From NCBI GenBank assembly GCA_027483535.1, contig JAIXUN010000002.1, positions 1,798,001 through 1,862,000 on the forward strand: 64,000 bases of DNA, written 5' to 3'. This DNA is from a bacterium (GTDB taxonomy: Bacteria > Armatimonadota > Fimbriimonadia > Fimbriimonadales > Fimbriimonadaceae). Numbering within the stretch: the stretch's first letter is position 1; each line of letters begins with the position of its first letter. Below, piece by piece: positions 13,152-23,354 of the stretch. The position numbers were made by a program, and so were the translations under genes. The notes beneath the pieces are model-generated. The model did not search any database. It was given only the letters and a program-made list of their open reading frames with translations, and was not told the DNA's origin.

Positions 13152-14665
13152 CTTGCCACCGCCAAAGACATGACTCCCTCTTCCGTTGCTCTTTCTCCGG
13201 AAAGTTCTCCTTGGATAGTCCCCGCCGCCATGACCAACACTCGGTCGGAGATCGCCAGGAGCTCGGGCAGGTCACTAGAAACCATTAGGATGGCCACCCC
13301 TTCTTGGGCCAGGCTACGAATGTGGTCGTGAATCTCTTGTTTCGCACCTACGTCGACGCCCCGAGTTGGCTCATCGAGGAGCAAGATTTTCGGTCCGACA
13401 GCAATTCGCGAGGCGAGAACAACTTTCTGTTGATTGCCTCCCGATAGTTCGCCAACGGGTTGATCGATCCCCGCCATTTTGGTTGAAAATCGTCCCGTCT
13501 CCCGCTCGGCCATCTCAACCTCCACCTTCCGGCTGATAAATCCGAACCGGTTGGCGAGTCGACGAAGAATTGGCAAAACGACGTTCTCTCGAATCGGTCG
13601 CTCGAGTAGGAGAGCATCGTGCCTACGATCTTCTGGCACCATGACCAGACCGGATTGAGCCGCCTCTCTTGGCGATGAAAACTTAACCTTTTCTCCGCCA
13701 AGCTCCACCGATCCGGCAACGGGCTTATCCAGCCCAGCAATGGCTCGCAACAGTTCGGTTCGACCCGCTCCCACAAGCCCACCGATTCCGACGATTTCAC
13801 CCGCATGAAGCACCAAAGAGCAGTCGGCAAAGTTCTTTCCGGATAACCCCTCGACTCTCAGAACCACTTCCCTCTGAACCTGCCCAGGGTGGTACGAACT
13901 GGGTTGATGAGAACTGGATTGGTGAGAATTGGACTTCACATCCCTGCCGACCATCGCCCGGATGAGGGAGTCGCGGTCGTAGTTGCCAATGGGACCAGAC
14001 GAAACCAACGCGCCGTCTCGAAGCACCGAAACCTCATCCGCCACGCGGAACACTTCATGAAGGTGGTGCGAGACGATTCCGATAGCCACTCCGCGCTCTT
14101 TCAAACGATCAATGATTCCGAACAGCCTGTCCACCTCGTTCGGAGTCAGGGGCGCGGTTGTTTCGTCGAAGATCACCACTTTCAACTCTTGCGCCATCGC
14201 CGCTGCAAGTTCTAGAAGTTGCTGATCGGCAATGGGAAGGCTCGCCGCAAGCTCAGTCGGTGATCGCTGAAGGCCGATTTCGGCGAAAATCTCACCCGCC
14301 CGCTCGAGCATCGCCTTTCGATCGACCAAACCCAATCGCCGAGGTACGGAGCCGGCAAAAATGTTCTCCGCCAAACTCAGATCGGGGAACGGAGTGGGTT
14401 CCTGGTGGATGAGAGACACACCCGCCTGCCGAGCCTTTAGCGGACTCGCAAACTGCACCTGCCGACCAAGAAGAGTCAGTTCCCCTCTGGTGGGCCGATA
14501 CAAACCGGAGATCACTTTCGCCAGCGAAGACTTCCCCGCCCCGTTCTCTCCGACCAAAGCGTGAACTCTTCCTGCTTGAAGCTGAATGGAAACGCCTTTG
14601 AGGGCTGCGACTCCGTTGAACTCCAGCGATATGCCTCGGGCATCGATCACCGGAACGGTGTTCAC
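13148..14665 (-). CDS. Sugar ABC transporter ATPase with two ABC domains (RhaT/LsrA/RbsA-like)
   Basis: The 505-residue protein fuses two ATP-binding cassettes, as in all RbsA/MglA-type importers. The first has Walker A GENGAGKSS (39-47) and an atypical signature (LPIADQQLLELA). The second has a degenerate Walker A GLVGAGRTE near 293 but a canonical LSGGNQQKV near 415 and LLLDEPTRGVD. Such asymmetry is usual in the family. The start is GTG 14665, chosen because GGAGG lies 7 nt upstream. It is the first gene of the operon; a promoter is predicted at 14690-14718. Gene order (ATPase, two permeases, binding protein) equals lsrACDB. Confidence 0.92.
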   Translation of the reverse strand: MNTVPVIDARGISLEFNGVAALKGVSIQLQAGRVHALVGENGAGKSSLAKVISGLYRPTRGELTLLGRQVQFASPLKARQAGVSLIHQEPTPFPDLSLAENIFAGSVPRRLGLVDRKAMLERAGEIFAEIGLQRSPTELAASLPIADQQLLELAAAMAQELKVVIFDETTAPLTPNEVDRLFGIIDRLKERGVAIGIVSHHLHEVFRVADEVSVLRDGALVSSGPIGNYDRDSLIRAMVGRDVKSNSHQSSSHQPSSYHPGQVQREVVLRVEGLSGKNFADCSLVLHAGEIVGIGGLVGAGRTELLRAIAGLDKPVAGSVELGGEKVKFSSPREAAQSGLVMVPEDRRHDALLLERPIRENVVLPILRRLANRFGFISRKVEVEMAERETGRFSTKMAGIDQPVGELSGGNQQKVVLASRIAVGPKILLLDEPTRGVDVGAKQEIHDHIRSLAQEGVAILMVSSDLPELLAISDRVLVMAAGTIQGELSGERATEEGVMSLAVAR

Positions 14666-14689
14666 TCGGAGACCTCCATTTGTCGCTCT

Positions 14690-14718
14690 AGCGTAACAGG
14701 AAATTCAAGACGGTTCAA
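14690..14718 (-). promoter_or_regulatory. Promoter of the sugar ABC importer operon
   Basis: Minus-strand TTGAAC (14713-14718) and TACGCT (14690-14695) are separated by 17 nt. The mRNA would start about 18 nt before the GTG and keep the GGAGG ribosome-binding site, so this operon is leadered. The rest of 14719-14994 holds no convincing gene: the plus-strand open frames there show no coding features. Confidence 0.55.
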
Positions 14719-14994
14719 CCCAAATCGCACAAATCTCTATCACAATCGCGCAAAAGTCGAACTTCTGGACAGGATTTGTCTTGAAATCATCGGGAAGAAT
14801 GCTTCCCTCGAGCAGCGAGTACCTTGCATTTGTGAAGGCGGTTGAAGTGATCAAACCAGGTCAGTGGTCATCCACTAATGGCAGTTACCTCTCATCGTAA
14901 GAATCTTGCTGGGACATTCGCTTTTTTGACCCATTGCGGTCAGCTTCTGACGATGTTGGTAGTCAGAATCAACTATTGGACTCCTGATATTAAG

Positions 14995-15441
14995 CTACTT
15001 ATCCAAAATGTCCTTTGCCATTCCTTCGGTGCCAATAAAGAACGATTGGGCCATCTTTTTAAATCCGAAATGGGGAGGTTCAAAAGTCGGAACCTCTATG
15101 AAGCAGAAGCCTCTCGCGTCGGTGTTTGGGTACTCAGGAATTTCCTTGCCGGTGGTTGTAACGATGCGTCTTTTAACCCAGGACTGGACGTAGTCACCAT
15201 CCGCGACATACCCCTTGCCTGCTTGGTTCACCGAAACAACTAGCTGCCCGTCTTCGATTTTTGCTCCTTTTGCCTGATGGACGTATAAGTTGAGCCGGCC
15301 CTGGAAAGTTTCTGGAACTTGTACAGTGAGGTCAACTTGTTGATTTGCCTTGTCGCATCCCCCTACTGCTAGAACAGATGCCATTATCAGCACGATTCTA
15401 AACTGATGATTCTTCTGCATCCAGGACAACTTTAGGTTCAT
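14995..15441 (-). CDS. Small hypothetical lipoprotein in the RHS remnant locus
   Basis: The protein is 148 residues, or 141 from the second ATG at 15420. It has a basic, hydrophobic N-terminus ending in a lipobox-like AVGGC near residue 29, so it is likely a lipoprotein. The mature part begins with a beta-rich segment (QQVDLTVQVPETFQGRLNLYV) and has no family I recognise. It overlaps the upstream gene 15438-15776 by ATGA. In the context of neighbouring RHS pieces it could be an immunity or accessory protein, which is inference. Confidence 0.6.
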   Translation of the reverse strand: MNLKLSWMQKNHQFRIVLIMASVLAVGGCDKANQQVDLTVQVPETFQGRLNLYVHQAKGAKIEDGQLVVSVNQAGKGYVADGDYVQSWVKRRIVTTTGKEIPEYPNTDARGFCFIEVPTFEPPHFGFKKMAQSFFIGTEGMAKDILDK

Positions 15442-15776
15442 GGTGGAGAACCTCGGTGAAGAACTTGTCGAACCATCCCGTCCTTATCCACCACCACACA
15501 CGCGACACCCCGTTCGCCACTGTGCACGTACACGGATCCAAGTGTAGACGGCTTTAAGGAAAAGCGATGATAGTCTTCCGGTGTTTCGAGCTTTAAGCCG
15601 GCTTTTCCGATCTTCGTCACCAATTCCCGGTAGTCACGGCCGATGAACTGAGTCGTAGCGTCCATTATCTCTCGGTCATCCAATGAGTGGACGAGCCGGA
15701 TACTAGCGAAACCGATCGCAACAAAGGAAGCAACCATCGCACCAATTTTCCAACTGTCTCTCAATAACTTTCTCAT
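15438..15776 (-). CDS. Small hypothetical membrane-anchored protein in the RHS remnant locus
   Basis: The 112-residue protein has a basic N-terminus and one hydrophobic span at about 11-29 (IGAMVASFVAIGFASIRLV). A small soluble domain follows that closes with SVYVHSGERGVACVVVDKDG, a strand-turn-strand pattern. No family is recognised. It is translationally coupled to 14995-15441 by a 4-nt overlap. AGGAG lies about 6 nt upstream of the ATG at 15776. Its position downstream of an RHS fragment suggests an accessory or immunity role; this is not demonstrated. Confidence 0.55.
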   Translation of the reverse strand: MRKLLRDSWKIGAMVASFVAIGFASIRLVHSLDDREIMDATTQFIGRDYRELVTKIGKAGLKLETPEDYHRFSLKPSTLGSVYVHSGERGVACVVVDKDGMVRQVLHRGSPP

Positions 15777-15807
15777 AGGAGTGACCTGGACATTCCGATT
15801 TCAGATC

Positions 15808-16165
15808 TCAATGTGACCTAGCTCCCAGACTATTTGCACTGCGGTCAAGTTGTGCACAGCACCATCCAAACCTCCGTCTCCTAGAAGTGAACCACCACGG
15901 AATGCTCGACGTGACCATGTGCGGAGTCCTGCGAACATCGGCATGAGACCACTTCTCTTTCGTAGTCGCAACTATCCCGAAAGTAGTCGTTACTCTGCTG
16001 GTGGTTTGCTTTCGACGGCAACGACAGTCGCCCGGACGTCCTCGTCGTTGGTTGCCACGGAAGCTGTTGATTCGTTTGGTTGCCGTTGGCATCGTAGGCG
16101 TAAGTCAGCGCAGAAAGGCTTTCCATGCCCCTCGATACTTTTTGAAGACCATTGGGTAGCTCCAA
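15808..16165 (-). pseudogene. RHS/YD-repeat protein remnant
   Basis: The minus-strand frame at 16165-15881 includes ALTYAYDANGNQTNQ, a textbook YD/RHS repeat (YDxxGNxT), and then loses RHS character. The reading frames in 16092-15808 show no further repeat and no start or terminal domain. The preceding small gene (stop 16105) reads out of frame into this RHS DNA, so its last residues come from RHS sequence. This looks like a recombination scar from a displaced RHS C-terminal module. The 328 nt between 15777 and 16104 hold nothing else that I can support. Confidence 0.65.
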
Positions 16166-16569
16166 ACAAACCGCGTAGAAACTCCAGCTTGACCAATCAA
16201 GGTACCAGAAGGCTTAAACTTGACGACCGCTGCGTTTCGCAAATTCGATAGGGGTCCTTCAGAGTCGTAGATTTTGACGATCACGGTTTTGGCTGTTTTG
16301 GGAGTAATGTGTATCCAGTCGGCTTTGACCGGGACTGGCATCAGCACCCTAGAAAAGTATTCGCTAGGGTTGTTAATTTCTGCTCCACGAGACGTGTACA
16401 GAAACATCCGACTGCTGAGATGCCACTTAGCTAGTCTTATAGTGTAGTCGCTATTATTTTCGACAGATAAGTAAACTTGGCCAGCACTACTTACGCGCTT
16501 TAGCTCGAAATGCAACTGAGACGCCAAGAAAGTTTCTAAAGTCGCCAAAAAAAGCATCACTGACATCAT
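16105..16569 (-). CDS. Secreted beta-rich hypothetical protein, candidate immunity protein for the RHS tip
   Basis: The 154-residue protein starts with a hydrophobic signal-like segment (MMSVMLFLATLETFLAS). A strand-rich domain follows: QVYLSVENNSDYTIRLAK, then MFLYTSRGAEI and KTAKTVIVKIYD. The pattern recalls small secreted Ig-like or proteinase-inhibitor folds, but the resemblance is weak. It overlaps the RHS tip gene by ATGA (16566-16569), the classical toxin-immunity arrangement. Its C-terminal residues (about the last 8) derive from RHS repeat DNA read out of frame, so the original end may be lost. Base composition is visibly more AT-rich than the flanks. Confidence 0.55.
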   Translation of the reverse strand: MMSVMLFLATLETFLASQLHFELKRVSSAGQVYLSVENNSDYTIRLAKWHLSSRMFLYTSRGAEINNPSEYFSRVLMPVPVKADWIHITPKTAKTVIVKIYDSEGPLSNLRNAAVVKFKPSGTLIGQAGVSTRFVWSYPMVFKKYRGAWKAFLR

Positions 16570-17300
16570 TTGCTCACCTCTGGGAAGCCGAACGATTTAT
16601 AGTCCCTCTGACCGTTGACCACTTTTAGCATACAGCAAGCTGCAATCGAGTGGCAACTAGCCACTTGATCATCAGCTTGATCAAATCCGCAACAATGCAT
16701 AAGTTCGTTCATTATCGCAAATTGCCAAACAGGCTTAATATATTGACCGTACCCATCCGAACATGACTTGGTCCCTTTGCAAAGCAACATCGTGTTCTTT
16801 TCACATTCAATGTCGGCACGCGGAGGGTCGGAATTCTCTTTCGTTTTGCAACAACTCGGCGGGTCTATGGTGGGCTTAGGATGATTTTTGCAGCGTTTTT
16901 TCAAGCACTTGAAGGGTTTGTCCCCGACCTGCTTACAAGCTGGTTTTCCTCCTCGACTCTTTAAGGCAGCTTCAACGCAGGCATTAACTTCCTTTCTCTG
17001 CTTTCTCGCCTTTTCGAAGTCGGCACATCCGGTTTCGACATCGCCTAGACCCGAAGGATCGACACTCCTGATCGCCCTACCCCCCACATACCTATACGCA
17101 CTCTCATCCGGCCAGAGCGGATCGACGGTCGTCAACACACCGGTCGTTTGTAAGTAGTGCCTCGCTCTCATGTAGTGAGAGCTGGCGTAATTGAACGTGG
17201 CTCTGTATCCATACGTTGCAACCCATTGATAAAAGCGGTCGGAGATGCTTCCAGAGCGAGAGAGCACTTCTCCGTACGGGTTGTAACGCATGATCTTCAC
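16566..17300 (-). CDS. RHS core C-terminus with variable cysteine-rich tip (orphan toxin-like module)
   Basis: The 244-residue frame starts at GTG 17300 with no clear ribosome-binding site. Residues 1-90 are the RHS repeat-associated core end: RYNPYGEV, YGYRATFNYASSHYMRARHY, TTVDPLWPDESAYRYVGG and the junction SVDPSGL that precedes variable tips. The tip (about 150 residues) has roughly 17 cysteines and a segment NELMHCCGFDQADD...ACC. This vaguely recalls zincin-like toxin domains (HELxH), but the first His is Asn. The upstream RHS core is cut by an in-frame TAG at 17313-17315, so this is an orphan or dead tip unless translated from GTG. Toxin activity is inference. Confidence 0.6.
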   Translation of the reverse strand: MKIMRYNPYGEVLSRSGSISDRFYQWVATYGYRATFNYASSHYMRARHYLQTTGVLTTVDPLWPDESAYRYVGGRAIRSVDPSGLGDVETGCADFEKARKQRKEVNACVEAALKSRGGKPACKQVGDKPFKCLKKRCKNHPKPTIDPPSCCKTKENSDPPRADIECEKNTMLLCKGTKSCSDGYGQYIKPVWQFAIMNELMHCCGFDQADDQVASCHSIAACCMLKVVNGQRDYKSFGFPEVSK

Positions 17301-17312
17301 CGCTGTTGCTGT

Positions 17313-17438
17313 CTAATCCACCACAGAATGGATGCTACCAAGAGCATCTCGAACGTAGTCTAGCATCACACCGTCTGTGACCTCGGAGACCATCAGACTG
17401 CTGGTTGAAGTATTGTTTGCTAGAATCACATGATGCTT
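17313..17438 (-). pseudogene. RHS core remnant fused in frame to the tip gene through a TAG stop
   Basis: Reading the minus strand in the frame of 16566-17300, the codons before TAG 17313-17315 give LMVSEVTDGVMLDYVRDALG then SIHSVVD. This is the RHS segment that normally runs straight into the YNPYGE motif. The frame opens only after a TGA at 17439-17441. The DNA therefore encodes a contiguous RHS core interrupted by one nonsense codon and cut off further upstream. Confidence 0.7.
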
Positions 17439-17466
17439 TCAAAGGCAAATATCTATCCATGGCAAG

Positions 17467-17880
17467 CTACTCTTTGACTTTTACTTCAATAATTATAAAC
17501 TCATACTGTTTTCCGCTTTCAGATTGAAGGCCTTTCCCAGTGTATACAATATCCGGAATCGGGTCTCCCGACTCCCTGTAAACCAGCGGCACTAGTCCTG
17601 CTTTATCACCAATAGTGTCCCAAATAAAGTCAGCCTTGCCGTTCCTTGGCACAATTGGAAATTCAGCGCTATCGCTTGCTGACAGGTCTTTTCTCGGGCA
17701 AAGCATTATCTCGTAAGCTTGCACCCTTCTGACTTCCTTCTCTTCTTCGGGAGAGAGGACTATTCTCCAGCGATGTTTAAGGTGCCCCTCCGGTCGAATG
17801 GAACATGCAAGATTCGAGATACACATTAACGCAATCAGACTGAGCGCGAGGCAATGAATCGTTTTAGTGGCTCCCATCAT
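17467..17880 (-). CDS. Small secreted hypothetical protein in the RHS remnant locus
   Basis: The 137-residue protein has a hydrophobic signal segment (IHCLALSLIALMCISNLAC) that may be a lipoprotein signal, although the -3 position is a poor lipobox fit. A soluble, charged domain with a Glu-rich stretch (SPEEEKEVRRVQAYEI) follows, and the end is beta-rich (KQYEFIIIEVKVKE). No family is recognised. It begins in an ATGA overlap (17877-17880) with the upstream RHS fragment, repeating the tip-plus-small-secreted-gene arrangement seen at 16566-16569. The sequence is AT-rich relative to the flanks. Candidate immunity gene by position only. Confidence 0.55.
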   Translation of the reverse strand: MMGATKTIHCLALSLIALMCISNLACSIRPEGHLKHRWRIVLSPEEEKEVRRVQAYEIMLCPRKDLSASDSAEFPIVPRNGKADFIWDTIGDKAGLVPLVYRESGDPIPDIVYTGKGLQSESGKQYEFIIIEVKVKE

Positions 17881-18302
17881 CCCTCGTTTTGAAACAACTC
17901 AAGTCTCATAACGGTCCTCCGGTTAATTTCTAATGTTAACTTGCTCTCCGAAGTTTGCGAGCCGAGGCGATCATCCGCCGCCGCCGCCCAAGTGGACGTA
18001 GCCGCGCTTTTGGGCACAACCGTTACTGAGGAAGTTGATCCGGCCGTGAGTTGTGCAGGGAAGTTGTGAAATTCGAAGATCGAGGCGTTCGCGTACTTGG
18101 TGAGCCTCCCTTGCAGGTAGTCGGTTCCATCCCAAACGAGAGTGGTTCGCCCGGATTTGATCTCTTGGGACGAGCGCTTGAGACTGTCCCCGTCGTAGGT
18201 GTAAGTAGAGGCCAGTCCACCGTCCTGGACACGGCGAGTCGTCCTATATTGGCGTAGCTGGCAAAGGACCATGGTCTCAGCAGATGGTACTGCCCTCTTC
18301 AA
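17877..18302 (-). pseudogene. RHS repeat fragment with divergent C-terminal tail
   Basis: The 141-codon frame carries an RHS repeat: STYTYDGDSLKRSSQEI then GRTTLVWDGTDYLQGRL, which matches the usual YDGDGLRRS...WDGxxYL module. There is no RHS N-terminus, and the frame starts at a non-ATG codon near 18302. After about residue 70 the sequence changes to an unrelated Ser/Thr/Ala-rich tail ending NRRTVMRLELFQNEG, which I cannot assign. It overlaps the next small gene by ATGA. It is best read as the truncated end of an RHS protein with a replaced tip. Confidence 0.6.
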
Positions 18303-18474
18303 AATCTGAGAAGGACCCTAAATGGGTAAATCTCTTTTGGGCTGCCTCTTCCCGCAACCGGCAAGATGAGCGCCCCTCCAGCGACCTCCTCTCGCCCAAA
18401 TCGACAAACTTCTCCCTGAATACGGAACACTTCGCGGTCACTCTTCGTTTCTGCACTCGTCTGTGGGGGTGGAA

Positions 18475-19035
18475 ATGGTTTTGGGAGCGTTTGTGGGCAC
18501 TTACCTGATGGCAAAGATCGGCGGGTTTGAACCGGAAGGGGATCTTTCTCTGCTGAACTTGGCAAAAATCGCGAGGCAGGCTGTTTCCGCTTCCCTCTCA
18601 CAGAGCTATAAGCCCTTGGCGACGGGAAAGCTAAAGGCGATGGGAGCCTTTGTGACCATCGAAAAGAACGGGCGAGTTTTAGGCTGTCGAGGCTTTCTGG
18701 ATAGCCCTCACCCATCTTTAGAACAAACCGTTGATGCGGCCGCGAACATGGCCGCTCGAAAAGACCCTCGATACGGACCCGTTCTGCTTGCTCCAACCGA
18801 TTCTTGGAGGGTGACGGTCACCGTGGTAGACGGTCTGCAGCCTTGCCGGGAGATCTCCGACTTGCAGCCCAATCAAGGATTGGTGCTGACGCAGGGCAAC
18901 CGAACGGGTGTGGTTTTGCCATTTGAAGGCAAGGATCCTGAAACTCGCCTAAAATGGGCTTACACAAAAGCGGGCGCAAAGTTTCAATCTGCCGCCAAGC
19001 TTCAGATTCTCACTGGCCGCAGGTGCCGACTGTAA
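18475..19035 (+). CDS. AMMECR1 domain protein
   Basis: The 186-residue protein matches the AMMECR1 family (PF01871), with the hallmark LKAMGAFVTIEKNGRVLGCRG at about 58-78 including the conserved Gly-Cys-Arg-Gly, and WRVTVTVVDGLQPC downstream. The biochemical role is not established; in other genomes the domain is linked to MEMO1-type and radical SAM proteins. ATG 18475 is chosen because a GGGGGTGG sequence precedes it at good spacing; GTG 18463 is possible. The stop overlaps the next start as TAATG, so it is coupled to the alpha-2-macroglobulin gene. Confidence 0.85.
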   Translation: MVLGAFVGTYLMAKIGGFEPEGDLSLLNLAKIARQAVSASLSQSYKPLATGKLKAMGAFVTIEKNGRVLGCRGFLDSPHPSLEQTVDAAANMAARKDPRYGPVLLAPTDSWRVTVTVVDGLQPCREISDLQPNQGLVLTQGNRTGVVLPFEGKDPETRLKWAYTKAGAKFQSAAKLQILTGRRCRL

Positions 19036-22000
19036 TGATTCAATCCATCGCGCTATTCACGTTGTGCCTTACGACTCAGTTTGATTTTGGGGCTACATCT
19101 AGGCCCGTCCGGAAGAGTCAGGTGACTAAACAGGTTGAAACGAAGATCCAGCCGGAACTGGTGGCAATTGCGCAACGAGGAGACGGCGACCCTTCTAGCA
19201 CCACAATCGCCGTCACCTCCATTGCCGTGCCGAGAGTCAAGCTGGAGTTCTTCCGAGTCGATACGCGATCCAAAATCACCGAGCTGGCTTTTTCTCCGAG
19301 CCGGGTTCCGAAGGTAGCCGGCAAACCGATTCGGGCGCTTTACGTGACCGCTCCTGCCTCGGCGAAGCGCTCCGGCGCGGTTTTCAACTTCCGCAAGAAC
19401 GTCAAGGTTTCGAATCTTCCAACGGGCTACTACGTCCTGAGAGCGACGGGCAGCGGGGCCAGTTATCAGTCTCTCGTGCCGATTACCAACCTCAACGTTC
19501 TCACGAAACGGGGTCGGAAGAAGACGCTTGTGTGGGTCACGAACTTCGCGACGGGCAAAGTGACTCCGTCGGCAAAGATCGAAGTGTTTGATAACGAGGG
19601 TCGGCCCGTTTCCACCGCAAAAACGAGCAACGATGGCATCGCTTTCATTCCAACTTCGGAAGCTAAATCTAAGTCGCGAGCCATCTTGGTCGGATCAGGC
19701 AGAGACCAAACCATTCTGTTGCAAAACGCCCCTTACGAGCGGGAGTCGACGGGGCATATCCAAACGGATCGCCCCATTTATCGACCCGGTAACGAGGTGC
19801 AGTTCAAAGGATTCTTCCGCGATCCGAGCGCATCTGGATACAAAACGCCCGTGGGCAAACGAGTCGATTTTGAGCTCCGTGATCCAGAAGATGAGGTTCT
19901 CCAGCGAGGAACGCTCACCACGAATTCGTTTGGCTCCGTCGCCGGATCGGTTGCCATCCCTGCAGACGGAACTCTAGGCGCGTATTCGCTTGTGCTCACC
20001 TACAACAAGCAGTCGTTCTACAGTGCTATCTCTTGCCTTGCCTACCGAAAGCCCCAGTTCAAGGTATCGACAAGCAGCACTCAAACCTTTTTTGCGGGGG
20101 ATAAAGCTTCTCTACAAGTAAAGGCGGAGTATCTGTTTGCGGCACCGCTTCCGAATGCGAACATCGCCTACACCGTTCGACGAGTGAAGCGGTCTTCCTC
20201 ACCCAGAACGGTGGACGTGTTCGACGACCCTGGGCAGGAGAATCTGACCTTCGCGGACGTTTTCAACGGAGATGAGTTTGTGGCGTCGGGTTATGCGCTC
20301 ACGGATCGAGAAGGGATTGCCAACATTGTTTTCCAAACCGCGAAAGACGGGCTGGATTCACGCTACAAAGTCTCTCTAACGGTCACGGACGCAACCAATC
20401 GCCAGGTGGAGTCGCAAGGGGCGGTTTACGTTCCAGCGGCGGCCGTTAAGCTTGACGTCGACACGAATGTCCAGTCGGTCGCGCTTGGCGAACAAATTCC
20501 CCTCACGCTAAAGACAAGCAACACCGAGGGCAAGCCGATCGCGGCTTCGGGAGTGCTCACCGCGACCAGGCAGGTTTGGAATGACAAGCTCGGTCGAGAC
20601 ACCACCGAAGTTCTGCTGCGAAAAGAAGTCCAGATCCCGAACTCAGGAAGGGTGACTGTGAACACTTTGGCAAGCCGCCAAGGGCGTATCGACTACGCCT
20701 TCGAGGTGAAGGATAGCCAGGGCAGAGTAGCTAGGGTCGAAACCGAAATCGACGTTTTTGGTCCGATCCCGTTCGAAGAAAAGGAGTTCACTCCCACTCT
20801 GTTGACGGCGATGAGCAAGAGGCGGCTGAAAGTGGGCGAGAAGGCGACTGTGCTCGTCACCACCAACGTTCGGAAGGGCCCCATTCTCTTTACAATCGAA
20901 GGGAATGATCTGGAAGACGCCCGCGTTTTTCAGCCTTCAGCCAAAGGAATCAAGGTCCCGATAACCGCGACGAAGGCCATGCAGCCGGGGGCGACTCTGA
21001 TTGCGACCCAATCCACGCGCTTCGACTTTCTGACCGACCAAACGGTGGTGGACATCCCTGCGACAGACGAAAAGTTGACCGTTCGAGTAACGCCAAAAAC
21101 CAAAGCGGTTCGACCAGGCGAAAAGACGACCCTCATGGTGGAGACTCTCGATGCGGCGGGTAATCCCACGGCCGCTGAGCTTTCGTTGAAGATCATCGAT
21201 GCGGCGATCTATCAGATCGCGGAGGAAAATGTCCTTGATCCATTCAAACTCCTTTGGGGTCCTCGATCCAATCAAGTCGAGACCACGTACTCGTCGGCTC
21301 GAGAACTCTCCGGTGGTGCCTTTCAAATGGCGGCTTATTACGATGGGAATAAAGTGGCTTCACCAAGTTCGCCCATCAGGGTGCGTCGAAATTTCCAAGA
21401 CACCGCTTACTGGAATGCCTTCGTCACAACTGGCAAAGACGGAAAAGCGGACCTGGAAGTCACGATTCCAGACAACCTAACCACCTGGCGAGCTACCGCC
21501 GTTGGGATCACAACAGACTCCCAAGCGGGAATGAACAGTAATTCGTTTGTTGCCACCCAACCGTTCACGCTCCGAATCGCCACCCCGAGGCAGATCGTTG
21601 CCGGAGACAAGCTCGACTTAACCGCGAGCATCAATAACCGTACGGATCTCCCTTCGAAGCTGAACGTTTCCCTCGAGGTAGACGTCGATGGGCAACGATC
21701 TCGTTTTGATTCAACGGTTTCGGTTTCCGCAAAGGGCGAGGAAACGTTTGTCTTCCCGGTAACAGTGCCGCAAGAACTCAGAAAGCTCGGTGCGAAGGTG
21801 GTGATTCGCGGAGAAGCCAAGCAGGTCGATGGGCCGGAAGGCGATGCCGTCGAAGAAGTGTTTCCAATGGTGCCGGGTGGGGTTTCTCGCCGAGTTCTCT
21901 CTTCGGGCGCCTTTGAGAACACCATTGTGCTTCAGCCCGAACTTCCGTCCAATAGACTCACCGGATTGGACGACTTCCGCCTGACCATTTGGGCGGGGGT

Positions 22001-23354
22001 GATGCCCGTTGTTCTTGAATCGACTCAAGGCGACTTCGACGCTCCGGGCTGGAACCCGCCTACCCTGGCGATGCAGATAGAATCGCTTGCCCGGCTGCCA
22101 AAGTCCGCTCAGCGATCGCTTTTGCCAACGCTCTTCTCTAGACTCTCGGCAACCAAAAGCGGAAATGGCTGGGGTTGGTGGCCCGAATCCAAGGGCGAGG
22201 CAGAAGTCACCACCGAAGTGGCTTATGCGATTGGAACAGCGCAACGTCTGGGTGTATCCGTTCCCGAACGCTTGAAGCCTTACACCTCGTCGGTACTGCG
22301 GAGCGTTCTCGATGAGAGCGGCACACCGGAGGCTAAAGCTCTGGTGCTTTCTTCCATTGCGATCTTAGAGCCGGGTCACATCGGCGCTGTGGTCGAATTT
22401 TCAAAGGATCTCAGTGAAGTGAGCCCCTACGCAAGGGCTCGCGTTGCCGAAGCGTTGCTTTTGAACGGCAAAACGGCCGAAGCACAAGCAATCCTTTCTA
22501 GCTTAAAACCGTTCGTTTCAGACAGTGGAGGCAGGGCCTTCCTGCCGGGCGGAGTAGGACTCGGCTGGAGCGCCGGGTCGACCGAAACCACGGCGCAGTA
22601 TCTGCATGCTCTTTGCCTCGCCAAAGCCGATAAGCCGTTGCGAACGCGACTGGCGCAGTGGCTTCTTGGCAAGGCGAAGGAGACCTACGGCAGCCGGCCC
22701 AAGGCGGCGATGATTCGCGGACTCACCTCTTACGAACAGTCCAGCCCGTCGGCATCAGAACTGGGTGAGGTAAGGGTGAGCGTAAACGGGAGCCCTCTGG
22801 AAGGCGTTGTGCGGCCAAGCGGAGCGATAATCCTTTCCGGAAAACTCCCCGCGTCCAATGCCCAAGTTGCGATTCAGTCTGGAGCCAAAGGCGAGGTCTT
22901 TTACGCCCTCGAATCGCGCTACTTTGACAACACCAATACCGAATCGCCAAGCGGGATTCGCGTGCTGCGGCGCTTTGAAGTGATGAACGAGGCGGGGCAA
23001 TGGGAAGAACTGAAGCGCGCGGTGCGCGTGAACGAACCCGTTCGGGTAAGCGTGGTCGCTTGGAGCGATGGACTTTCCGAGCCGATTCGGATCACCGAAC
23101 CGATCCCGGCGGGATTTGAATATGCAGATGGCGATACGTCGTCTTGGGCGTACGAGGAGGTTCGGGACGGGGCGGTGGTTCACACGCTCGTCGTTGGGGA
23201 CCAGCCGCTCTTCTTCCGCTACTATCTTCGAGCGGAAAGCCCGGGTACGGTGCTGGCGCTTCCGGCGATTATGGAAGTGCTGCGTCGCGGCGATGCCGCC
23301 GGGCAGTCGTCCGCCTCCCTGCTCAAGATTCAAAGCGTGCCAAAGAATCCATGA
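19035..23354 (+). CDS. Alpha-2-macroglobulin family protein lacking the thioester motif
   Basis: The 1439-residue secreted protein has a signal peptide at residues 1-22 (IQSIALFTLCLTTQFDFGA). Macroglobulin-like beta domains follow, including the MG2 segment GHIQTDRPIYRPGNEVQFKG at about 238. The A2M signature region AYWNAFVTTGKDGKADLEVT near 785 is followed by TWRATAVGIT. The helical TED-like domain has GWGWWPESKGEAEVTTEVAY. Where CxEQ would form the thioester (about 1002), the sequence is APGWNPPTLAMQ, so it cannot bond targets covalently and resembles YfaS-type thioester-free members. A role in trapping proteases is inferred. It is coupled to AMMECR1 (TAATG) and to the next gene (ATGA 23351-23354). 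Confidence 0.92.
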   Translation: MIQSIALFTLCLTTQFDFGATSRPVRKSQVTKQVETKIQPELVAIAQRGDGDPSSTTIAVTSIAVPRVKLEFFRVDTRSKITELAFSPSRVPKVAGKPIRALYVTAPASAKRSGAVFNFRKNVKVSNLPTGYYVLRATGSGASYQSLVPITNLNVLTKRGRKKTLVWVTNFATGKVTPSAKIEVFDNEGRPVSTAKTSNDGIAFIPTSEAKSKSRAILVGSGRDQTILLQNAPYERESTGHIQTDRPIYRPGNEVQFKGFFRDPSASGYKTPVGKRVDFELRDPEDEVLQRGTLTTNSFGSVAGSVAIPADGTLGAYSLVLTYNKQSFYSAISCLAYRKPQFKVSTSSTQTFFAGDKASLQVKAEYLFAAPLPNANIAYTVRRVKRSSSPRTVDVFDDPGQENLTFADVFNGDEFVASGYALTDREGIANIVFQTAKDGLDSRYKVSLTVTDATNRQVESQGAVYVPAAAVKLDVDTNVQSVALGEQIPLTLKTSNTEGKPIAASGVLTATRQVWNDKLGRDTTEVLLRKEVQIPNSGRVTVNTLASRQGRIDYAFEVKDSQGRVARVETEIDVFGPIPFEEKEFTPTLLTAMSKRRLKVGEKATVLVTTNVRKGPILFTIEGNDLEDARVFQPSAKGIKVPITATKAMQPGATLIATQSTRFDFLTDQTVVDIPATDEKLTVRVTPKTKAVRPGEKTTLMVETLDAAGNPTAAELSLKIIDAAIYQIAEENVLDPFKLLWGPRSNQVETTYSSARELSGGAFQMAAYYDGNKVASPSSPIRVRRNFQDTAYWNAFVTTGKDGKADLEVTIPDNLTTWRATAVGITTDSQAGMNSNSFVATQPFTLRIATPRQIVAGDKLDLTASINNRTDLPSKLNVSLEVDVDGQRSRFDSTVSVSAKGEETFVFPVTVPQELRKLGAKVVIRGEAKQVDGPEGDAVEEVFPMVPGGVSRRVLSSGAFENTIVLQPELPSNRLTGLDDFRLTIWAGVMPVVLESTQGDFDAPGWNPPTLAMQIESLARLPKSAQRSLLPTLFSRLSATKSGNGWGWWPESKGEAEVTTEVAYAIGTAQRLGVSVPERLKPYTSSVLRSVLDESGTPEAKALVLSSIAILEPGHIGAVVEFSKDLSEVSPYARARVAEALLLNGKTAEAQAILSSLKPFVSDSGGRAFLPGGVGLGWSAGSTETTAQYLHALCLAKADKPLRTRLAQWLLGKAKETYGSRPKAAMIRGLTSYEQSSPSASELGEVRVSVNGSPLEGVVRPSGAIILSGKLPASNAQVAIQSGAKGEVFYALESRYFDNTNTESPSGIRVLRRFEVMNEAGQWEELKRAVRVNEPVRVSVVAWSDGLSEPIRITEPIPAGFEYADGDTSSWAYEEVRDGAVVHTLVVGDQPLFFRYYLRAESPGTVLALPAIMEVLRRGDAAGQSSASLLKIQSVPKNP

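What the first reader, a model, noticed from the sequence alone, without database searches (positions are those of the whole stretch)
14995..18302. Decayed RHS locus with alternating toxin-tip remnants and small secreted genes
Three RHS/YD-repeat fragments (17877-18302, 16566-17438, 15808-16165) lie on one strand, and small signal-bearing genes sit between them (17467-17880, 16105-16569, 15438-15776, 14995-15441). Two small genes start in an ATGA overlap with the preceding RHS fragment, as toxin-immunity pairs do. No RHS N-terminus or full core remains. This fits repeated displacement of C-terminal tips by recombination, leaving an archive of orphan tips and immunity candidates. The region is also more AT-rich. 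RHS tip displacement is known; this array and its small genes are not assigned here.
Basis: partly seen in the sequence, partly recalled or inferred. Interest (0 to 1): 0.7.

Follow-up and report, generated by a model that had tools for sequence, protein, structure and literature searches.

The report
Broken toxin-tip array from split Rhs genes
This stretch is the decayed remnant of a bacterial toxin-and-partner gene array, and its intact relatives belong to a lineage of Rhs toxins in which the shell and the toxin tip are encoded by two separate genes, so that many different tips lie side by side as complete genes of their own.

Summary
All three RHS pieces are confirmed by homology, the four small genes are long intact ORFs, and the region is the GC minimum of the window. 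No RHS shell survives here or elsewhere in the genome. The same chromosome carries a second array 0.43 Mb away with five open tip genes, each followed by a small gene; its fifth core is the closest relative of the window's (about 70% identity). Related genomes explain the layout. In a well-supported clade of Armatimonadota Rhs proteins the gene is split: a 1050-1270 aa shell gene stops just before the Rhs-associated core, and a ~300 aa gene with its own conserved start codon and ribosome-binding site encodes core plus cysteine-rich tip. Tips stand in tandem, each followed by a partner gene. The window is a broken member: shell end, a tip gene with an in-frame stop, lost start and damaged metallopeptidase-like motif, a YD scrap, and four surviving partners. 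Orphan toxin/immunity arrays are known; I found no report of the split with self-starting tips. That the small genes are immunity genes rests on position alone: they have almost no homologues.

The parts
18105..18314 (-). Remnant of the 3' end of an RHS shell gene (TYTYDGDSLKR...TTLVWDGTDYLQGR); the normal stop just after this motif is not in this frame, and nothing of the shell upstream remains
   Evidence: tblastn 41-67% identity to shell ends of G036 and G030, E 1e-8 to 1e-10
17467..17880 (-). Small lipoprotein-like gene, 137 aa, intact; candidate partner (immunity) gene whose own tip is lost
   Evidence: ORF with hydrophobic N-terminus and lipobox-like NLAC; no family; no homologue in 61 relatives
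17058..17438 (-). Rhs-associated core of a split-type tip gene, broken: conserved start and ribosome-binding region absent, in-frame TAG at 17315-17313
   Evidence: TIGR03696 E 2e-7; 69% identity to L008 18243-19217, E 1e-51; frames; tree
16569..17057 (-). Cysteine-rich tip after DPSG (15 Cys in 163 aa), related to HExxH tips of other Rhs genes; reads NELMH (16709-16695) in place of HExxH
   Evidence: tblastn E 1e-20 to 1e-23 over core and tip to L072, L031, L071; phmmer of the tip alone E 2e-4 to L071; alignment
16105..16569 (-). Small secreted or membrane-anchored gene, 154 aa, intact, overlapping the tip by ATGA; candidate partner (immunity) gene of that tip
   Evidence: no family; no homologue in 61 relatives
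16037..16105 (-). YD-repeat scrap (TYAYDANGNQTNQQLPWQPTTRT) of a further module, beginning at the stop codon of the preceding partner gene
   Evidence: 83% identity over 23 aa to the L068 RHS fragment, E 2e-6
15438..15776 (-). Small gene with N-terminal membrane segment, 112 aa, intact; candidate partner of a lost tip
   Evidence: homologue in G144:C35 (29%, E 4e-13), at a contig end so its neighbours are unknown
14995..15441 (-). Small lipoprotein-like gene, 148 aa, intact, ATGA overlap with the preceding gene; candidate partner of a lost tip
   Evidence: only a 35-residue marginal match (E 0.0099, frame with stops) in 85 family genomes

Best explanation
The locus is the decayed remnant of an array of Rhs tip + partner modules belonging to a split-Rhs clade of Armatimonadota (mostly Fimbriimonadaceae). 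In the intact form (shown by sequence in relatives) a shell gene of YD repeats stops just before the Rhs-associated core; a separate gene with its own start codon and Shine-Dalgarno site encodes the core (about 120 aa, ending in DPxG) and a cysteine-rich tip; a small partner gene overlaps or closely follows; and further tip+partner modules with unrelated tips follow in tandem. Inferred mechanism: shell and core+tip proteins assemble into one Rhs cocoon, as TcB and TcC do; the core's aspartyl protease frees the tip; the tip acts outside the cytoplasm on competitors; the membrane or lipoprotein partner gives immunity; and modules are exchanged by homologous recombination in shell end and core. 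In the window this has decayed: the shell is reduced to its last ~65 codons, the one recognisable tip gene is broken, another module survives as a YD scrap, and only the four partner genes stay intact.
For: Homology of all three pieces. Open five-module array in the same genome, its fifth core nearest to the window's. 26 shell-to-tip junctions in 15 genomes with separate frames, 15 of them with shell frames of at least 1000 aa. Shell stop 74-80 nt before the core and tip start 23-26 codons before it. Shine-Dalgarno match in 37 of 53 tip starts against 21.7% background. Shell and core domains fall on different genes. Core tree: a 100/100 branch encloses all 21 split rows and the window. Partners within +10 nt of the tip stop in 46 of 61 and with hydrophobic N-terminus in 44 of 61; tips 7.5% Cys. 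Lesions in the window.
Against: The immunity role is positional only; partners share no sequence family. This genome and G010 keep tip arrays without any intact shell of the clade, so the two-component cocoon cannot operate there unless a shell was missed. Five core-clade members are fused, so the split is not obligatory. No structure or experiment supports assembly.
Confidence: 0.75

Rival explanations
1. Immunity bank: the locus is not simply junk but a retained set of immunity genes; toxin and shell parts decayed because only the partner genes (17467, 16105, 15438, 14995) give a benefit, protecting against relatives that still fire the matching tips.
For: All four partner ORFs are open while all RHS pieces are broken. 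One partner has a homologue in another genus. Functional orphan immunity expression is documented for CDI (PMC3150448) and polyimmunity loci are described (PMC3482391).
Against: Short ORFs survive longer than long ones under neutral decay; no dN/dS can be computed for three of the four; expression unknown.
Confidence: 0.35
2. Plain neutral relic: the whole locus is decaying after loss of the shell and the small ORFs are open only because decay is recent. Compatible with the best explanation, but with no present function.
For: No intact shell in the genome; multiple lesions in the tip gene; GC minimum typical of imported, unameliorated DNA.
Against: Four small ORFs all open; core dN/dS against the nearest cassette is still 0.23, although that may predate decay.
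Confidence: 0.5
3. The small genes are unrelated to the RHS pieces and the alternation is chance: ordinary small lipoprotein genes beside a random RHS scrap.
For: Three of four have no homologues or family, and none matches partners in other arrays.
Against: The alternation repeats the layout of 18 fetched array loci; partners there are equally orphan, small and mostly membrane-bound, and the ATGA junction at 16566/16569 is the same as in 7 other tip-partner pairs.
Confidence: 0.08
4. The split is an artefact: ordinary fused RHS genes broken by sequencing or assembly errors, or joined in the cell by programmed frameshifting.
For: Fused members exist in the same clade (G024, G003).
Against: Same split point in 15 genomes, with differing stop codon, frame relation and spacing but a conserved tip start and Shine-Dalgarno site. 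In some loci the stop lies in the same frame as the tip, which frameshifting cannot bypass (L072, L076).
Confidence: 0.04

Closest known systems
Orphan rhs-CT/rhsI and cdiA-CT/cdiI modules (Poole et al. 2011, PMC3150448)
   Same: Tandem toxin-tip fragments, each followed by a small immunity gene, with conserved upstream sequence and unrelated tips
   Different: There most orphan toxin fragments lack translation initiation signals and the main gene is fused; here tip genes have their own conserved start and ribosome-binding site and the main gene itself is split. The immunity partners here look membrane-anchored or secreted.
TcB/TcC cocoon with several TcC loci (Yersinia entomophaga YenB with YenC1-3, PMC11067744)
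   Same: Shell in two proteins; one shell protein with several alternative proteins that carry core plus variable toxin
   Different: The TcC conserved part is ~680 residues, here ~120; no Tc-specific Pfam domain was found in the two split shells scanned; immunity-like partner genes follow each tip here
T6SS and other fused Rhs effectors (e.g. RhsA, PMC8765631)
   Same: YD-repeat shell, C-terminal Rhs-associated core, DPxG, variable tip, downstream partner
   Different: There shell, core and tip are one polypeptide; no T6SS domain was seen in the scanned shells
Toxin-cassette arrays and polyimmunity loci (Zhang et al. 2012, PMC3482391)
   Same: Arrays of toxin cassettes with adjacent immunity genes; runs of immunity genes alone are described
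   Different: None of the window's small proteins matches a curated family

Membership tests
Rhs polymorphic toxins | Rhs-associated core and DPxG before the tip | tested here: met
   TIGR03696 E 2e-7; VDPSGL present
Rhs polymorphic toxins | YD-repeat shell of ~1000 residues | tested here: not met
   Only the 3' end and one YD scrap in the window; longest shell piece in the genome 245 aa
Rhs polymorphic toxins | Small gene directly downstream of the tip | tested here: met
   16105-16569 overlaps the tip by ATGA
Rhs polymorphic toxins | Tip is toxic and the partner neutralises it | not testable with these tools
   needs expression assays
Split-Rhs clade (defined here) | Core falls in the split clade | tested here: met
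   100/100 branch; sister to L008 18243 (100/98)
Split-Rhs clade (defined here) | Shell stop directly before a tip-gene start with Shine-Dalgarno site | tested here: not met
   Start region lost in the window and a small gene lies between shell end and core; met in relatives. The window is filed by homology as a decayed derivative.
Orphan CT/immunity module | Toxin fragment without its delivery gene, with adjacent small gene | tested here: met
Tc toxin BC component | Tc-specific domains besides RHS repeats | tested here: not met
   Two split shells of relatives scanned: RHS_repeat and YD models only; the window has no shell to scan
HExxH metallopeptidase tip | HExxH motif | tested here: not met
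   Window tip reads NELMH; related tips read HELMH or HEVLH; motif in 12 of 60 tips against 0.18 expected
HExxH metallopeptidase tip | Fold of a zinc peptidase | tested here: inconclusive
   Model pLDDT 32; only weak Peptidase_M76 hits, best E 0.006, in 3 tips

The most novel reading that the evidence does not exclude
A lineage of Armatimonadota runs a two-gene Rhs weapon: one shell and many interchangeable, independently translated core+tip genes, so tip choice is made by expression and assembly rather than by recombination into one long gene. Each module carries its own translation signal, often lying in the last codons of the shell, and the partner genes outlive the weapon as an immunity bank, as in the window.
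Probability: 0.4. Interest if true: 0.75.

Novelty: new variant of a known kind. Interest (0 to 1): 0.5.

Why it matters
If the split is functional, one Rhs shell could load many tips without the recombination that fused Rhs and CDI systems need, which speaks to the open question in Poole et al. of why toxin fragments are kept in orphan arrays. It gives a testable two-component Rhs cocoon outside the Tc toxins, in a phylum with little functional work, and a source of cysteine-rich, mostly unclassified tips with membrane-anchored partners. The window itself shows an end state: weapon gone, partner genes still open.

Tried and rejected
Frameshift or assembly error as the cause of the split: rejected, because stop codon, frame relation and spacing differ among loci while the tip start is conserved across genera. 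Programmed frameshifting: unlikely; in some loci the stop is in the same frame (L072, L076). Homology among the small genes, or between them and partners in other arrays: none found (phmmer; BLASTP; hhalign). Structures: tip pLDDT 32 with four sequences, partner pLDDT 55, Foldseek no match below 0.001, so no fold claim is made. The PLA2-like reading of four tips rests on a CG...C..HD pattern only; a PDB sequence search did not support it for the one tip tried, and a tip profile found nothing in the PDB. Orthologous flank: AMMECR1 and the A2M gene adjoin in 9 of 9 relatives, but the sugar-ABC side is not conserved, so no clean empty site could be read. Alignment A1 was too diverse for a scan.

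Full report
CHECK OF THE OBSERVATION. The window is G000:C1:1798001-1862000 of a 3.77 Mb, 4-contig, 99% complete genome. The reported ORFs are present. Two tests support the RHS identity. The tip-gene core hits TIGR03696 (E 2e-7; above the curated cut-off). A tblastn of ORFs from related loci against 14001-19000 recovers three RHS segments on the minus strand: 18314-18105 (shell 3' end, E 1e-8 to 1e-10), 17438-17049 plus tip to 16599 (E 1e-51 for the core) and 16105-16037 (YD repeat, E 2e-6). GC is 49.5% in the region against 55.1% in the window, the lowest stretch of the window; the small genes are 46-51%.

WHAT SURVIVES AND WHAT IS BROKEN. The sequence shows directly that the shell is reduced to its last ~65 codons. 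The tip gene has no recognisable start at the conserved place, an in-frame TAG at 17315-17313 within the core, and NELMH where related tips have HExxH. The four small ORFs are open over 112-154 codons, with hydrophobic or lipobox-like N-termini. The 16105-16569 gene overlaps the tip by ATGA. The YD scrap begins at that gene's stop codon, as in L068, where a new module starts inside the end of the preceding partner gene. The 15438 and 14995 genes overlap by ATGA and would then be partners of lost tips (inference).

THE SAME GENOME HOLDS AN OPEN ARRAY. At G000:C1 2,238,660-2,248,770 (L008 9659-19770) lie a 245 aa shell end and five tip ORFs of 286-324 aa (stop to stop), each followed by a small gene. 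The fifth core is the window core's nearest relative (69-71% protein, 76.5% DNA). No complete RHS shell was found in this genome.

THE RELATIVES EXPLAIN THE LAYOUT. Of 61 genomes (own included), 30 have a matching core, most in frames of 230-400 aa. Searching with an intact 1252 aa shell (L067) and pairing the two tables by hand gives 26 shell-to-tip junctions in 15 genomes where shell and tip are separate frames, 15 of them with shell frames of at least 1000 aa (count). The shell ends in WDGxDYLxE- plus a few residues and a stop mostly 74-80 nt before the core. The tip gene starts 23-26 codons before the core, usually ATG GCN/CCN ATG, so stop and start are adjacent or overlapping. A Shine-Dalgarno match of at least 4 nt precedes 37 of 53 tip starts, against 21.7% of random ATGs in the same loci; in many loci it lies in the codons for the terminal LGE of the shell. 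Stop codon, frame relation and spacing differ between loci, which argues against sequencing error and programmed frameshifting. NCBIfam and Pfam divide the proteins the same way: RHS and YD repeats in the shell, Rhs-associated core in the tip gene.

ONE CLADE. A tree of 90 cores from the loci in hand has a 100/100 branch separating 63 rows (21 split, 31 own-start, 5 fused, 5 orphan including the window, 1 at a contig edge) from 27 rows with no split. The split type is thus confined to one core clade, mostly in Fimbriimonadaceae, with a few other genomes (a related family, a Chthonomonas record, one Actinomycetota MAG that may be misbinned, one viral contig). Few alignment columns limit the finer branching, and changes of label within the clade are frequent. 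Standalone core frames in tandem are common in the phylum also outside this clade: 187 of 237 genomes have a core match.

TIPS AND PARTNERS. Tips average 7.5% cysteine against 0.87% for window genes. Partners start at or before +10 nt of the tip stop in 46 of 61 cases, 8 of them as ATGA; 44 of 61 have a hydrophobic N-terminus, against 20 of 47 larger window genes (mechanical start calls and a simple hydropathy cut, so approximate). HExxH occurs in 12 of 60 tips, with 0.18 expected after shuffling. DUF6973 (E 4e-12), NAGPA (E 7e-4) and weak Peptidase_M76 hits are the main other family leads. Cysteine-rich tips and membrane-anchored partners suggest action outside the cytoplasm (inference). Cores of array members differ at synonymous sites far more than at replacement sites (omega mostly 0.07-0.3), so they diverged under constraint; whether in the array or before import cannot be told.

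HOW IT LIKELY WORKS. Established for Rhs and Tc proteins: the C-terminal core spirals into the cocoon, seals one end and, as an aspartyl protease, cleaves off the toxin (PMC8765631), and one TcB shell can package cargo from several TcC loci (PMC11067744). Inferred here: the separate tip protein completes the shell and brings its own cargo, so one shell could serve many tips. Against this, this genome and G010 keep arrays without any intact shell of the clade, so in them the arrays are an archive, a set of immunity genes, or decaying. In the window the partner genes are the only intact part, which fits an immunity bank but does not prove it.

KNOWN AND NEW. Orphan toxin/immunity arrays behind Rhs and CDI genes are known, and in CDI most orphan toxin fragments lack translation starts (PMC3150448); toxin-cassette arrays and polyimmunity loci are described (PMC3482391). 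I found no description of an Rhs lineage split at the core with self-starting tips (the held library is partial). I file the window as a decayed derivative of that variant: it fails the intact-shell and junction tests, and the assignment rests on homology of its parts and on the tree.

LIMITS. Immunity is positional: the small proteins have no family, and only 15438-15776 has a clear homologue (29%, E 4e-13, at a contig end). Structure predictions were too poor to use. Delivery, expression and activity are untested.

Noticed in passing
L067 4816-5415 (upstream of the intact split shell of G018): A standalone 199 aa gene that looks like a Hint/intein-type domain (Intein_splicing, Hint and Vint all weak, E 0.02-0.05), directly before the shell gene; possibly a processing partner.
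   Followed up: partly
L008 16675-17160 and L009 330-998: Two same-strand copies of a Lhr-helicase-like C-terminal fragment flank the fifth tip module of the own-genome array, and an IS3-type transposase-like tail lies at L008 16457-16753 (read by eye); mobile or duplicated DNA around the module.
   Followed up: no
L140 5155-5511 and 9239-9595: Two copies (87% identical) of one small partner-like gene 4 kb apart in G144, the first directly after an RHS tip; a possible duplicated immunity gene.
   Followed up: partly
L066 10802-11296: The partner of a CG...C..HD (PLA2-like pattern) tip is an ankyrin-repeat protein with an N-terminal membrane segment (Ank_5 is hit by one partner, E 8e-12).
   Followed up: no
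window 18463-23354: An AMMECR1 gene followed by a bacterial alpha-2-macroglobulin gene, a pair kept adjacent in 9 of 9 relatives examined.
   Followed up: partly
L102 3989-4873 (IMG/VR contig): A split-clade core + tip gene with its own start and a lipoprotein-like partner on a contig classed as viral, perhaps a carrier of such modules.
   Followed up: no
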